Under the pieces are notes generated by a model. It saw only the letters and a list, made by a program, of their open reading frames with translations, did not search any database and was not told where the DNA came from. Below are positions 7,669 to 26,577 of a stretch of DNA of 64,000 nt, one piece after another (positions within the stretch are counted from its first letter, which is position 1; each line of letters begins with the position of its first letter). Position numbers and translations under genes: made by a program. This DNA is from Aequorivita vladivostokensis (GTDB taxonomy: Bacteria > Bacteroidota > Bacteroidia > Flavobacteriales > Flavobacteriaceae): the NCBI RefSeq assembly GCF_000952855.1, contig NZ_JSVU01000005.1, forward strand, positions 186,001 through 250,000, given 5' to 3'.

Positions 7669-8097
7669 ATGAGTAACAAAAGCAGATTAGTAGAAGGAAA
7701 AGCAACGCCGCGCGGCGCATATCCACATGTAAAACGCGTGGGCGATTTTATATTTATAAGCGGAACAAGTTCGCGTCTGCCGGATAATACATTTGCCGGC
7801 GTTCATAAAATTGACGAAATGGGCACGATGCATTTCGATATAAAAGAACAAACCCGCGCCGTGCTTGAAAACATAAAAGATTATTTAGCCACCGAAGGCG
7901 CAACAATGGCAGATGTTGTGGACGTAACAAGTTTTTTGGTAAATATGAATGACTTTGCAGGTTACAATCAGGTTTACGCTGAGTATTTTAATAAAGAAAC
8001 GGGACCAACGCGCACTACCGTTGCCGTGCATCAATTGCCGCATCCTTATTTGGTTGTGGAGATTAAGGCGATGGCTTATTCTCCAGTTAAGAGTTAA
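7669..8097 (+). CDS. RidA-family 2-aminomuconate deaminase
   Basis: A 142-residue member of the YjgF/YER057c/UK114 (RidA) superfamily. In kynurenine or nitrobenzoate clusters this family converts 2-aminomuconate to 4-oxalocrotonate. The sequence shows the opening [23 protein letters not shown], the conserved middle [12 protein letters not shown], and the C-terminal [13 protein letters not shown] strand. Proper RidA proteins have a late arginine that binds the substrate carboxylate; here the position falls near GPTRTTVAV. The assignment as a specific deaminase rests mainly on its neighbours kmo and the semialdehyde dehydrogenase. Confidence 0.88.
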
Positions 8098-8113
8098 GAG
8101 TGCAGAGTTATGA
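8086..8113. repeat. 7-bp word array across the deaminase-dehydrogenase junction
   Basis: Four adjacent 7-bp units (two exact GTTAAGA, then GTGCAGA and GTTATGA) cover the last codons and stop of the deaminase gene and the ATG of the next gene at 8110. Confidence 0.7.
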
Positions 8114-9567: not shown

Positions 9568-9578
9568 GGAATAAAAAT

Positions 9579-9620
9579 ATTGAGAATTGAGAATTAAGAA
9601 TTGAACATTGAATATTGACT
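9579..9620. repeat. Six tandem 7-bp units directly before the SDR start codon
   Basis: Exactly 42 bases made of six units of the form ATTgAnN (two exact ATTGAGA first, ATTGACT last) end at the base before the ATG at 9621. The array fills nearly all of the 53-base spacer. Confidence 0.85.
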
Positions 9621-10406
9621 ATGAATTTAGACTTAACAGATAAAAACGCCCTAGTTTGCGGAAGCACCGCTGGCATTGGAAAAGCAACCGCTATTCAATT
9701 GGCAAAACTTGGGGCGACCGTAACTTTGGTTGCCCGCGATGAAGCAAAATTAAAAGATACTTTGATTGACCTTCCTTTTGAAAAAGGCCAAAAACACAAC
9801 TATTTTGTGGCGGATTTTACCAATCCGAAACAGGTAAAGGAAAAGGCCGAGCTGGCCGCTTCCAACAAAACATTTCATATTTTGGTAAACAACACGGGCG
9901 GCCCAAAAGGCGGTCCCATCGTTTCCGCGGAAACCGAGGAATTTGAAAAAGCATTCTCAATGCACGTAATTTGCAACCAGATTTTGGTACAGGCGCTCGT
10001 CCCCGGCATGAAGGAAGCTGATTACGGCAGAATTATCAATGTCATTTCCACTTCGGTAAAACAGCCTATCGACGGGCTGGGCGTGAGCAATACCATTCGC
10101 GGCGCGGTTGCAAGTTGGAGCAAAACTCTGGCGAATGAGTTGGGCCAATTCGGGATAACGGTGAACAACGTTTTGCCAGGTTTTACAGCTACTGACCGGT
10201 TGGATGACATTGTTGGAAATGCTGCAAAACGCATGAATAAAACCGAAAAAGAGGCCTGTGAGTTTATGAAAAGTCTTGTTCCGGCAAGGCGTTTCGCCCA
10301 ACCGGGTGAAATTGCAAATGCTGTTGCATTTTTGGCCAGTGAAGCCGCGAGCTACATCAACGGAATAAACCTTCCAGTAGATGGTGGACGCACTAAAAGT
10401 TTGTAA
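9621..10406 (+). CDS. Short-chain dehydrogenase/reductase of the kynurenine cluster
   Basis: A 261-residue classical SDR. The cofactor motif reads GSTAGIGKATA (residues about 13-23) and LVNNTGGPKGG replaces the usual NNAG. The catalytic segment is odd: after NVISTSVKQPIDGLGVSN the tyrosine of the standard YxxxK is not present at the expected place, while SWSKTLANELGQFGI gives the lysine-like region. Reduced or altered catalysis is therefore possible. SDRs of this kind occur in other flavobacterial kynurenine clusters, but their substrate is not established. The ATG at 9621 is taken; a TTG two codons upstream lies inside the 7-bp repeat array. Confidence 0.85.
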   Translation: MNLDLTDKNALVCGSTAGIGKATAIQLAKLGATVTLVARDEAKLKDTLIDLPFEKGQKHNYFVADFTNPKQVKEKAELAASNKTFHILVNNTGGPKGGPIVSAETEEFEKAFSMHVICNQILVQALVPGMKEADYGRIINVISTSVKQPIDGLGVSNTIRGAVASWSKTLANELGQFGITVNNVLPGFTATDRLDDIVGNAAKRMNKTEKEACEFMKSLVPARRFAQPGEIANAVAFLASEAASYINGINLPVDGGRTKSL

Positions 10407-19956: not shown

Positions 19957-20622
19957 GGTTGTATATTATTGAACGGTAGACGCTTAGGACGGGCTACGAT
20001 TGTAATATTGTTATTCTCTGGGATTGATAACTTTTTTATTGCTATATCTTTCTGTTACAATTCAACAATTTTAAACCCTTTGAGAGTTTCTATTATCTAT
20101 CTTTTTAGTTAGGTGTTCCGCATTTATACACTTTAGAAAATCTATTCCAAGAGTTTGGTATTTAAAAGCATTATCCCTAACCTACTGTTGGGTCTAGGGG
20201 TAGCGAAGTCAGCTATAATAGAAACAATAGGATTTTTATTTACCTGATTCTTTTTAAGGGTTGCAATCGTTTTGGAGTTATATTAAAGTAGAAGTCTATA
20301 TAACTATTATACACTATAAATACGCTTTAAACACGCTATATATATACTATAAATACACTTTATATACGTTATAATTGAAATCTAAATATAACTTATGTTT
20401 TACCCAAGCAGTACTTATTTGGGACGGTTGATTATTTTTAAAGTGATATTGACAGTATAGGATTTGCGCATTTGCTGTCGCCAAAGAGGTCAGAAATGGG
20501 CTTTGTAATATTAAAAATCCAACAGGTTTTTGTTTGAATTGCAGGCTTAGTTGTGGGCCGGCCCAAGTGTCATTTCAGCTGCGCTCAATGATCGAGAGAC
20601 TGTTGACTGCGCAAAGTTGAAG
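19957..20622. other. 666-base gene-free region with repeat array and possible decayed coding remnants
   Basis: No credible gene is present. The region contains an 11-bp phased repeat (20303-20367), a GGGCCGGCCC palindrome (20555-20564) and a degenerate copy of the CTGCGCTCA-core inverted-repeat element (about 20572-20615). Two minus-strand open stretches read like protein: about 46 codons from 20282 to 20143 (with SIIADFATPRPNSRLGI) and about 33 codons ending near 19953 (with NNITIVARPKRLPFN). They are in different frames and have no plausible starts. They may be remains of a mobile-element gene, or chance. Confidence 0.5.
20303..20367. repeat. 11-bp tandem repeat array, AT-rich
   Basis: Five consecutive 11-bp units from 20313 to 20367 fit the pattern rCTwTAwAyAy; ACTATAAATAC occurs exactly twice (20313-20323 and 20346-20356). 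A 10-bp degenerate unit precedes them at 20303. An 11-bp period is close to one DNA helical turn, so the same face is presented each time, as in iterons or operator arrays. Confidence 0.8.
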
Positions 20623-21840: not shown

Positions 21841-21891
21841 ATTGATTCAAAATTCAAGGTTTTAAAATTCAAGATTTTTGTTTCCTCATAT

Positions 21892-21947
21892 ATAAACTTC
21901 TCAACTCATCGACTTCTAAACTTTTAAACCCATAAACATTTAAACTT
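21892..21947. repeat. 8-bp word array upstream of gpmI
   Basis: Seven contiguous 8-bp units of the form nTAAACTT (first ATAAACTT, last TTAAACTT) end exactly where the predicted -7 element of gpmI begins. A shorter set of 7-bp ATTCAAg words lies at 21845-21876. Confidence 0.8.
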
Positions 21948-21954
21948 ATCTTTG
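21947..21954 (+). promoter_or_regulatory. Predicted -7 element of gpmI, almost leaderless
   Basis: TATCTTTG matches TAnnTTTG and ends only 4 bases before the ATG at 21959, so transcription would start at or near the start codon. Confidence 0.6.
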
Positions 21955-24534: not shown

Positions 24535-25341
24535 ATGATAATTCCAAAAACAAGAGAAGAAATAGAATTGATGCGCGAAAGCGCCTTGGTGGTTTCCCGT
24601 ACTTTGGGAATGCTCGCAAAAGAGGTAAAACCGGGTGTTACCACCAACCAACTCAATAAAATGGCGGAAGACTACATCCGTAGCCAAGATGCCGTTCCCG
24701 GCTTTTTGGGATTGTATGATTGTCCTTCAACGCTGCTTACCAGTGTAAATGAGGCTGTGGTCCACGGCCTGCCAACAGACATTCCTTTAAAGGAAGGCGA
24801 TATTGTGGCTATTGATTGCGGCGCCATAAAAAACGGTTTTTACGGCGACCACGCTTATACTTTTGAAGTAGGCGAAGTGGCTGCCGAAATAAAAAAACTG
24901 TTGAAAATCACAAAAGAATCCCTTTACGTCGGTATCCGCGAATTTAAAGCTGGCAATCGCGTAGGCGATGTAGGTTTCGCCATTCAAAATTATTGCGAAG
25001 CACACGGCTATGGCGTGGTTCGTGAACTTGTTGGCCACGGACTCGGAAGAAAAATGCACGAAGACCCTGAAATGCCAAATTACGGGCGTCGCGGTCGTGG
25101 AAAGAAATTTATTGAGGGAATGACCATTGCACTGGAACCGATGATAAATATGGGAACCCACAAAGTGAAACAATTAAAGGATGGCTGGACCATCGTAACC
25201 CAAGATGGACAGCCCAGCGCACACTTTGAGCACAATATTGCTTTGGTAAACGGAAAACCCGAACTGCTTTCTACATTTGCTTATGTGTATGAAGCCTTGG
25301 GCATTGTGAGCGATGAGGAAAAGGAGTTCCGAGCAAACTGA
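24535..25341 (+). CDS. map: Type I methionine aminopeptidase
   Basis: A 268-residue enzyme that removes initiator methionine. The metal ligands of the family are visible: Asp in AIDCGAIKNGFYGDHAYTF (two Asp), His in LVGHGLGRKMHEDP, Glu in IALEPMINMG, and Glu in AHFEHNIALV. The substrate-side His is in VVHGLPTD. Typical length. Here map is separated from the ribosomal-protein context seen in many bacteria. It is followed by an inverted word array and the GxxExxY gene. Confidence 0.95.
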   Translation: MIIPKTREEIELMRESALVVSRTLGMLAKEVKPGVTTNQLNKMAEDYIRSQDAVPGFLGLYDCPSTLLTSVNEAVVHGLPTDIPLKEGDIVAIDCGAIKNGFYGDHAYTFEVGEVAAEIKKLLKITKESLYVGIREFKAGNRVGDVGFAIQNYCEAHGYGVVRELVGHGLGRKMHEDPEMPNYGRRGRGKKFIEGMTIALEPMINMGTHKVKQLKDGWTIVTQDGQPSAHFEHNIALVNGKPELLSTFAYVYEALGIVSDEEKEFRAN

Positions 25342-25349
25342 AAATGCTA

Positions 25350-25389
25350 TTACACTGAGTTACGCTGAGAAACACAGAGATTCGCGGAG
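25350..25389. repeat. Left inverted word array of the GxxExxY gene
   Basis: Four 10-bp units, each ending GAG (TTACACTGAG, TTACGCTGAG, AAACACAGAG, ATTCGCGGAG), end 2 bases before the ATG at 25392. The inverted counterpart lies after the gene at 25759-25800. Confidence 0.85.
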
Positions 25390-25391
25390 AA

Positions 25392-25766
25392 ATGAACAAC
25401 GAATTAACAGAAATTATAATAGGTTCAGCAATAGAGGTTCATCGAAACCTTGGACCGGGTCTATTAGAATCTGCTTATCAGGAATGTCTTTTATTTGAAC
25501 TGAGAGCGAAGGGATTAATTGTTGAAAAAGAAAAACCCTTGCCTATAATTTATAAAGACATAAAATTAGATCACGGATATAGAATTGATTTATTGGTTGA
25601 AAATTCAGTCGTTATAGAAATCAAAACTGTAGAAAATTTCACAGATGTGCATACAGCACAAGTTTTAACATATCTTAAATTAGGAAAGTATCCTTTAGGC
25701 CTGATGTTCAACTTTCATACAATACTTTTAAAAAACGGCTTAAAAAGATTTATAAATTCTCAGTGA
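25392..25766 (+). CDS. GxxExxY protein (PDDEXK_3 family)
   Basis: A 124-residue member of the GxxExxY family (TIGR04256/PF13366). The name-giving motif is GPGLLESAYQECL at about residue 20, and the nuclease-fold signature is GYRIDLLVENSVVIEIKTVE (D at about 74, ExK about 85), followed by the conserved VHTAQVLTYLKL. A nuclease fold is predicted, but no activity is established for the family. The gene lies between map and a methyltransferase gene and is bordered on both sides by inverted arrays of 10-bp words. The right array includes its last codons and stop. The layout looks like a small cassette inserted into an older gene pair. Confidence 0.88.
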   Translation: MNNELTEIIIGSAIEVHRNLGPGLLESAYQECLLFELRAKGLIVEKEKPLPIIYKDIKLDHGYRIDLLVENSVVIEIKTVENFTDVHTAQVLTYLKLGKYPLGLMFNFHTILLKNGLKRFINSQ

Positions 25767-25800
25767 AACTCCGCGGAACCTCTGTGCAACTCTGTGTAAC
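25759..25800. repeat. Right inverted word array of the GxxExxY gene
   Basis: On the minus strand there are four units of 10, 10, 11 and 10 bp, each ending GAG (TTACACAGAG, TTGCACAGAG and so on). They match the left array in order and spacing. It overlaps the gene's stop codon at 25764-25766. Confidence 0.85.
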
Positions 25801-25812
25801 AACCCAAAACTT

Positions 25813-26577
25813 TTGTTCAAAAAACTCCTAAATACCATTCCCCGTCCGCTGCTTATACGATTGAGCATTATCGGCAGGCCTATATTTGCATTTTTTCTTA
25901 GGGGAAATAAATACACCGACCCTATTGACGGCAAATCATACCGAAAGTTTCTTCCGTACGGTTATGAAACCGTTCGTGAAAATGTGCTTTCGCCCGGAAC
26001 GCTTTCTTTGGAAAGGCACAGATTGTTTTGGTTGTATCTTCAAAATGAAACAGGGTTTTTTACTGAAAATATAAAAGTGCTCCACTTTGCACCCGAGCAG
26101 GCTTTTTATAAGAAATTCCGGAAAATGAAAAACCTAAATTATACCACAACCGACCTCAATTCACCCATTGCAGATGTGAAAGCTGATATCTGTGATTTAC
26201 CCTTTCCCGATAACGAATTCGATTTTATAATCTGTAACCACGTTTTGGAACACATTCCGGATGATACCAAGGCGATGCAGGAAATTTATCGCGTCCTTGC
26301 ACCCGGCGGCACGGCAATTCTTCAAGTTCCCTATAAATCAGATTTGGAAAAAACATTTGAGGACGATAGCATTACCGACCCAAAAGAGCGCGCCAGGATT
26401 TTCGGGCAGTACGATCACGTTCGGGTGTATGGGATGGATTATTTTACCAAGCTTGAAAGTATCGGCTTTAAAGTTGAGGCGGTAGATTACACCCAAAACC
26501 TCTCTTCCGAGGAAATTGAAAAATACAGATTACCAAAAGGTGAGTTAATTCCTGTAGGCAAAAAATTAGTTTCCTAA
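25813..26577 (+). CDS. Class I SAM-dependent methyltransferase
   Basis: A 254-residue methyltransferase with TTG start at 25813 (N-terminus MFKKLLNTIPRPLLIRLS). The SAM domain shows KVLHFAPEQAFYK in place of a glycine-rich motif I, TTDLNSPIADVKADI with the acidic ribose contact, DLPFPDNEFDFIICNHVLEHIPDD, and IYRVLAPGGTAILQVP. Motif I lacks its usual GxGxG, which is also seen in this subgroup of Bacteroidota proteins (HFAPE). Substrate unknown. The last 12 bases overlap apbE on the other strand. The GxxExxY cassette ends 12 bases upstream of its start. Confidence 0.85.
   Translation: MFKKLLNTIPRPLLIRLSIIGRPIFAFFLRGNKYTDPIDGKSYRKFLPYGYETVRENVLSPGTLSLERHRLFWLYLQNETGFFTENIKVLHFAPEQAFYKKFRKMKNLNYTTTDLNSPIADVKADICDLPFPDNEFDFIICNHVLEHIPDDTKAMQEIYRVLAPGGTAILQVPYKSDLEKTFEDDSITDPKERARIFGQYDHVRVYGMDYFTKLESIGFKVEAVDYTQNLSSEEIEKYRLPKGELIPVGKKLVS

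What the first reader, a model, noticed from the sequence alone, without database searches (positions are those of the whole stretch)
25350..25800. GxxExxY gene bordered by inverted arrays of 10-bp words
The gene for a predicted PDDEXK-fold protein of unknown function sits exactly between two inverted arrays: four 10-bp units before it and four 10-11 bp units after it, all with a GAG end, matched in order. The right array contains the gene's stop codon, and the left ends 2 bases before its ATG. The arrangement is that of a mobile or self-propagating cassette (nuclease-fold gene plus terminal inverted repeats), perhaps a repeat-recognising system. It lies between map and a methyltransferase gene whose TTG start follows 12 bases later.
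Basis: partly seen in the sequence, partly recalled or inferred. Interest (0 to 1): 0.82.

Follow-up and report, generated by a model that had tools for sequence, protein, structure and literature searches.

The report
Nuclease-like gene between mirrored word arrays
A tiny gene for a nuclease-like protein of unknown function sits between two mirror-image arrays of 10-letter DNA words, and comparison with relatives suggests that such gene-plus-array cassettes are a widespread kind of selfish DNA that copies itself into the same place in related bacteria.

Summary
GxxExxY ORF 25392-25766 (PF13366, TIGR04256) lies between four CRCNRAG words on each side, inverted, GAG ends facing the gene; no other run of three or more such words is in the window.

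It generalises. Of 128 GxxExxY loci, 70 have at least two such words on both sides; 0 of 146 neighbouring control ORFs do. A distant protein subfamily mostly carries another word, CRCNRAT (26 of 40; 2 word I, 12 undecided). On new loci 18 of 38 did, none word I, 20 fitted neither.

It behaves as mobile. Of 27 readable map-MTase junctions, 10 are empty, 9 hold a short hairpin, 7 intact or decayed cassettes, 1 something else. In three species the ORF is identical or one base apart while neighbouring genes differ by 2-8%. Some other sites show such islands, some do not. No pair above 82% identity was at clearly different sites: spread looks homing-like.

Best reading: a selfish cassette around a Cas4-like PD-(D/E)XK protein. 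Recognition of the words by the protein is inferred, not shown. Four-helix-bundle (S23) genes show a similar architecture.

The parts
25350..25389 (+). left array: four 10-bp words, consensus NNNCRCNGAG, GAG end towards the gene
25392..25766 (+). GxxExxY / PDDEXK_3 gene, 124 aa, Cas4/RecB-like PD-(D/E)XK protein
   Evidence: conserved E26, D66, E76, K78, Q90, Y94; AlphaFold2 model pLDDT 94.7, best solved match 4ic1
25759..25799 (-). right array: four words of 10-11 bp in inverted orientation; holds the stop codon 25764-25766
24535..25341 (+). map (type I methionyl aminopeptidase); in occupied alleles its last codons (EFVL/EFVV of the empty alleles) are missing in 16 of 17
   Evidence: TIGR00500; alleles read by eye
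25813..26577 (+). class I SAM-dependent methyltransferase ORF downstream of the cassette
   Evidence: PF08241

Best explanation
The insert between map and the methyltransferase gene is one copy of a widespread selfish cassette: a small Cas4/RecB-like PD-(D/E)XK gene (GxxExxY) bounded by inverted arrays of about 10-bp words. It spreads mainly by being copied into the same intergenic site of related bacteria (homing-like allelic spread), then decays and is lost; the same sites may hold only a hairpin of related words. SHOWN: arrays flank most examined members in one polarity; empty, filled and decayed alleles exist; identity islands about the size of the cassette exist at some sites; the word changes with the protein subfamily. 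INFERRED: the protein binds or cuts DNA at word arrays or at the hairpin or cruciform they form, and repair of the break copies the cassette across. NOT SHOWN: any biochemical activity, or the step that first inserts a cassette at a new site.
For: CRCNRAG words, two or more on both sides, inverted: 29 of 55 genus/order loci and 41 of 73 broad loci against 0 of 146 control ORFs; opposite polarity 3 of 55, 6 of 73 and 1 of 146. Own-arm complementarity above the control 95th percentile in 86 of 128 loci, and in 22 of 38 new loci. Word follows protein subfamily: I 96 word I / 5 word II / 14 undecided; II 26 word II / 2 word I / 12 undecided. Empty alleles in 10 of 27 genomes, decayed cassettes in G020, G016 and G002; second polymorphic site. 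Identity islands: ORF differs at 0, 1 and 1 of 375 sites where the MTase differs at 60, 34 and 62 of 759, Fisher p 1e-3 to 3e-11, while the vertically diverged pair G000-G022 shows no excess; L027/L074 and L019/L022 similar. Catalytic residues conserved and protein under purifying selection (59 of 125 codons differ between G000 and G022, 48 synonymous). Cas4-like fold.
Against: No activity was or could be tested. Array and gene are linked, so word-protein association can arise from joint inheritance without recognition. On new loci 20 of 38 subfamily II members fitted neither word, and 13 of 115 subfamily I members have no word of either type. Islands are not universal: L024/L068, L017/L018 and L001/L008 show none; for G000-G018 the map side is itself only 2% diverged. 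Solo arrays do not follow presence of the gene: G001 has 21 array hits but no match to the window protein. The hairpins at the map site use a different spacing type from the cassettes there, so they need not be the same family. Ordinary homologous recombination could also carry a cassette between species.
Confidence: 0.58

Rival explanations
1. IVS-like RNA element: the arrays are kept because the transcript folds into a long stem that isolates or removes the cassette from the host mRNA, as RNase III excises S23 intervening sequences from 23S rRNA. The protein is passenger or helper and mobility has another cause.
For: Arms are matched in order over 70 loci; own arms pair better than foreign arms (median -24.4 against -15.7 kcal/mol); the window RNA closes a stem round the gene. 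Four-helix-bundle (S23) genes in the same genomes have the same plan, and the Coxiella IVS has tandem heptamers before its S23p ORF and a 28-bp terminal stem cut by RNase III (PMC4990558, passages only).
Against: The cassettes read here lie between protein genes, not in rRNA. A stem alone needs no fixed word, yet the word is conserved and changes with the protein subfamily. Identity islands need a DNA-level copying process.
Confidence: 0.17
2. RAYT/REPIN-like element: the protein moves the arrays and hairpins to new sites as non-autonomous elements.
For: 149 strict array hits in 23 of 28 genus genomes, reversed pattern 0 in 28 (some hits lie in cassettes). Gene-less hairpins stand at the map site in 9 of 27 genomes.
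Against: No ORF pair above 82% identity lies at clearly different sites. Array number does not follow the gene. The protein is not of the tyrosine-transposase kind.
Confidence: 0.12
3. No functional link: word arrays are common gene-end hairpins (terminators, boundaries) and small ORFs happen to lie between them.
For: Arrays without genes are common and lie at gene ends, also in this window.
Against: 0 of 146 neighbouring ORFs have two words on both sides; polarity towards the gene is strongly biased; the word depends on the protein.
Confidence: 0.07

Closest known systems
GxxExxY / PDDEXK_3 proteins (TIGR04256, PF13366)
   Same: The gene is a member by sequence.
   Different: The family record gives no function or DNA context in the tools used; the arrays and the cassette behaviour are added here.
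23S rRNA intervening sequences with S23p (four-helix-bundle) ORF
   Same: Small ORF, terminal inverted repeats, tandem short repeats before the ORF, presumed mobile (PMC4990558, passages).
   Different: Here the protein is a PD-(D/E)XK nuclease-fold protein, words are about 10 bp, and the site is between protein genes.
Free-standing homing endonuclease genes (recalled)
   Same: Spread into the same site, islands limited to about the inserted gene, decay and loss, nuclease-fold protein.
   Different: Bordered by word arrays; no cleavage shown; no insertion-disrupted target site identified.
REP / RAYT / REPIN elements (listing and opening of abstracts only)
   Same: Gene beside short inverted repeats that also occur alone; repeat type goes with protein type.
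   Different: Enzyme family differs; repeats are multi-word arrays; recent spread looks allelic.
Cas4 / RecB-type PD-(D/E)XK nucleases, archaeal Hjc
   Same: Fold and catalytic residues.
   Different: Single 124-aa domain; no iron-sulphur cysteines noted; neighbours are not cas genes.

Membership tests
GxxExxY (TIGR04256 / PF13366) | profile match above the curated cut-off | tested here: met
   147.1 bits against cut-off 35; 143.2 against 22
PD-(D/E)XK nuclease | conserved catalytic D, E-x-K and the Cas4/RecB-type E and QxxxY (motif names recalled) | tested here: met
   E26, D66, E76, K78, Q90, Y94 invariant in 20 and in 70 sequences
PD-(D/E)XK nuclease | fold | tested here: met
PD-(D/E)XK nuclease | DNA cleavage | not testable with these tools
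   needs biochemistry
Homing endonuclease gene | empty and filled alleles at one site in relatives | tested here: met
   10 empty, 7 cassette or cassette-derived of 27
Homing endonuclease gene | horizontal copying limited to about the element | tested here: met
   ORF 0-1 of 375 differences, MTase 34-62 of 759; L027/L074, L019/L022; not seen in L024/L068 and L017/L018
Homing endonuclease gene | sequence-specific cut of the empty allele | not testable with these tools
   needs biochemistry
RAYT/REPIN | Y1 (HUH) transposase | tested here: not met
   only PDDEXK_3 / GxxExxY match
RAYT/REPIN | dispersed gene-less copies of the flanking repeat | tested here: met
   149 hits in 23 of 28 genomes, reversed pattern 0; some lie in cassettes
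23S rRNA IVS (S23p) | S23 / four-helix-bundle ORF | tested here: not met
23S rRNA IVS (S23p) | location inside 23S rRNA | tested here: not met
   between map and a methyltransferase gene
23S rRNA IVS (S23p) | terminal inverted repeats able to form a stem | tested here: met
Insertion sequence | target-site duplication | tested here: inconclusive
   read by eye: none seen; 16 of 17 occupied alleles lack the last map codons that 10 of 10 empty alleles have, G020 excepted

The most novel reading that the evidence does not exclude
GxxExxY cassettes, together with four-helix-bundle (S23) cassettes, belong to an unrecognised, phylum-spanning class of array-bounded selfish genes. Each lineage carries its own short DNA word, repeated about once per helical turn (shorter for the four-helix type) in inverted arrays. 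The small protein reads that word, or the hairpin it makes, to copy the cassette into allelic sites, and word and protein diversify together.
Probability: 0.3. Interest if true: 0.92.

Novelty: new variant of a known kind. Interest (0 to 1): 0.74.

Why it matters
GxxExxY proteins are found in many prokaryotic lineages, and the searches made here found no function for them. The arrays turn them into an element with ends, a candidate substrate and a life cycle that can be tested directly. If the protein reads the words, natural word-protein pairs in many genomes would be a ready-made specificity code for a 124-residue nuclease, and a common class of short intergenic word hairpins would be explained.

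Tried and rejected
A generic 7-mer score with one mismatch was too noisy in AT-rich DNA: 86 of 128 loci against 19 of 149 controls at score 6 or more, but also 163 of 381 mismatched pairs and 44 of 128 in direct orientation. It was replaced by a fixed word and local alignment.

The MTase tree of 27 genomes was too poorly resolved to count gains and losses. Phages gave no match, plasmids 8 records, all below 60% identity, so carriage by such elements is not supported. Array number did not follow presence of the gene. PDB sequence search gave nothing below E 0.27.

Papers: 'GxxExxY' in 2 papers, one passage of PMC8934634 seen, about a gene beside a reverse transcriptase. Array words as text: 0 papers. 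Mobile-element terms: 0 papers; listings and opening of abstracts only. PMC4990558: passages. PMC2267715: none of the five search terms occurs. Only the licensed part of PubMed Central is held, so this is not proof of absence.

Rows dropped: of 58 + 80 ORFs, 128 were kept (55 + 73); the 7 broad loci dropped are L147, L152, L170, L174, L178, L187, L201 (short ORFs or contig edges), the rest contig edges or repeated flanks. One search had already left out ORFs with a stop in the match, without an ATG, or matched over fewer than 85 residues. In one search, 27 of the 30 loci were added; L088 and L237 are the same locus, both undecided, counted twice. In one search the two fusion loci L293 and L294 and the misframed L128 were left out. 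In one search three pairs are one locus fetched twice.

Full report
OBSERVATION. The ORF 25392-25766 encodes a GxxExxY protein (TIGR04256 E 2.6e-43; PF13366 E 5.6e-42). Four words of the form NNNCRCNGAG stand on each side, inverted, GAG towards the gene, and the right array contains the stop codon. In 64 kb these are the only runs of three or more CRCNRAG words. The arms pair at -39.9 kcal/mol, 0 of 500 shuffles as low, and close a stem round the gene in the folded RNA. By local-alignment score alone the locus (16.5) is above the control 95th percentile (14.0) but below the 99th (20.0).

THE PATTERN IS GENERAL. In 59 genomes (the window's own included) 35 hold a homologue; of 98 matched rows 14 list a stop inside and others are fragments. 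Flanks of these and of 80 loci from GTDB genomes (mostly Bacteroidota) show the same plan. Two or more CRCNRAG words on both sides, inverted: 29 of 55 genus/order loci, 41 of 73 broad loci, 0 of 146 neighbouring control ORFs; in the opposite polarity 3 of 55, 6 of 73 and 1 of 146. Spacing peaks at 10 bp, mostly 8-11. Outside Bacteroidota, words were counted (left, right) in two Nostoc loci (4,4 each), a Thiotrichaceae MAG (4,4), a Rhodospirillales MAG (3,3), a Neomarinimicrobiota MAG (2,2) and an Ignavibacteria MAG (4,2); loci from Planctomycetes (1,0), Verrucomicrobia (0,1), Elusimicrobiota (0,3) and Treponema (1,2) fall short. MAG contigs may be misassigned. Without assuming a word, own-arm complementarity exceeds the control 95th percentile in 86 of 128 loci.

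WORDS FOLLOW THE PROTEIN. In the genus/order set the GAG word is found on both sides in 29 of 35 loci whose protein is at least 48% identical to the window's and in 0 of 20 below; several of the latter carry CACGAAT-like words. Classifying 155 loci by protein profile alone, subfamily I has 96 word I (CRCNRAG), 5 word II (CRCNRAT) and 14 undecided; subfamily II has 26 word II, 2 word I and 12 undecided (Fisher 5e-20, but loci are related). Word II was defined after seeing these loci, so 40 new loci were fetched. With the rules fixed, 38 subfamily II loci gave 18 word II, 0 word I, 20 undecided, and 2 subfamily I loci gave 1 word I, 1 undecided; some of the undecided show periodic arrays of yet other words by eye. 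Word-free complementarity held in 22 of 38. Protein distance and flank k-mer distance correlate (r 0.26, 0 of 300 permutations). Because array and gene are linked this shows that the unit stays together at divergences where neutral flanks should be randomised; it does not prove recognition.

ARMS ARE MATCHED IN ORDER. Over 70 loci the i-th word of one arm resembles the i-th of the other more than other words (0.654 against 0.593 +/- 0.010; 0 of 1000 shuffles; better in register in 44 of 70). This favours pairing or copying between arms. In the window itself the best stem is shifted by one word.

EMPTY, HAIRPIN AND DECAYED ALLELES. The map-MTase junction could be read in 27 of 28 genus genomes. 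It is empty in 10 (about 27-34 nt; G019 prints 52 because its map match ends earlier). A short gene-less hairpin, CTC-loop-GAG, stands in 9 (G001, G005, G009, G011, G013, G014, G015, G023, G025; judged by eye, words worn in G015 and G023). G008 has another 96-nt insert. Cassette or cassette-derived sequence stands in 7: intact in G000, G012, G018 and G022, internal deletion in G020, remnant in G016, an intact copy between two remnants in G002. All 10 empty alleles keep the last codons of map (EFVL or EFVV); 16 of 17 occupied alleles lack them, G020 excepted (read). No target duplication was seen by eye. At a second site (GLPGLI-family gene to TonB-like gene, 23 loci) a cassette stands in G004, G019 and G014 (contig end), a deleted remnant in G011, and short hairpins or other sequence elsewhere.

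IDENTITY ISLANDS. Between G000 and G018 the ORF is 375/375 identical while the MTase differs at 60 of 759 sites and the map side at 21 of 940; for G000-G012 the figures are 1, 34 and 56, for G018-G012 1, 62 and 52. Fisher p runs from 1e-3 to 3e-11; the vertically diverged pair G000-G022 shows no excess (p 0.87 and 0.33). The matching block begins inside the left array or at the start of the ORF and ends 13-60 nt into the MTase gene. Elsewhere, L027/L074 share 97% in the ORF and 90-94% in the adjoining 100 nt, against 73-92% beyond; L019/L022 share 98%, and 96-97% in the first 200 nt to the right, falling to 69-82%, their left sides not being alignable there. L024/L068, L017/L018 and L001/L008 show no island, and others are weak. 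Constraint does not explain the islands: G000 and G022 differ in 59 of 125 codons, 48 synonymous. Among the ORF pairs compared, none above 82% identity lies at clearly different sites; L032/L081 lacks a right-flank match and some loci reach contig edges. Recent spread therefore looks allelic, like homing, though ordinary recombination is not excluded.

DISPERSED ARRAYS. A strict three-word pattern has 149 hits in 23 of 28 genus genomes, the reversed pattern 0 in all 28; some hits lie in cassettes. G001 has 21 hits without a match to the window protein, so arrays do not need a resident gene of this kind.

A SECOND GENE FAMILY WITH THE SAME PLAN. Four-helix-bundle/S23 genes (TIGR02436) are in 28 of 28 genus genomes, 5 to 21 matches each, 11 in G000. 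Most of the 30 loci read lie between inverted tandem arrays of about 6-9 bp words that differ by lineage; in three (L108, L109, L113) the left array looks direct, not inverted. 23 of 29 exceed the control 95th percentile. The published Coxiella IVS has tandem heptamers before its S23p ORF and a 28-bp terminal stem cut by RNase III (PMC4990558, passages only), which makes an IVS-like RNA role a serious rival.

VERDICT. A real and widespread association that the searches made here did not find in print (only part of the literature is held). Most likely a selfish, homing-like cassette. The enzymatic step and recognition of the words remain inference.

Noticed in passing
genus genomes, L105-L134: Four-helix-bundle (S23) genes, 5 to 21 per genome, are bracketed by tandem arrays of 6-9 bp words that differ by lineage, mostly inverted.
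   Followed up: partly
window 8083-8113, 9574-9627, 20297-20374, 21891-21949: Gene-less tandem word arrays at gene ends (AGTTAAG, ATTGAGA, ATACACTATAA, TTTAAACT-like words), similar in kind to the four-helix-bundle cassette arrays.
   Followed up: no
L294 2456-5131; L293: GxxExxY domain continuous with a RecQ-like helicase in one ORF of 891 aa; four genomes (G083, G095, G111, G219) list open frames of 883-896 aa. The helicase label is from reading the sequence, not from a profile search.
   Followed up: partly
L059 (G002, map-MTase junction): An intact cassette between two cassette remnants, 906 nt, as if the site had been invaded more than once.
   Followed up: no
L318, L320, L321, L326, L332 (GLPGLI-TonB junction): A different dispersed repeat with GTCGAG/CTCGAC words stands at the same junction that holds a cassette in other species.
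   Followed up: no
L069, L071: Here the gene lies between two complete CTC-loop-GAG hairpins in direct orientation; recombination between them would leave one solo hairpin (seen by eye).
   Followed up: no
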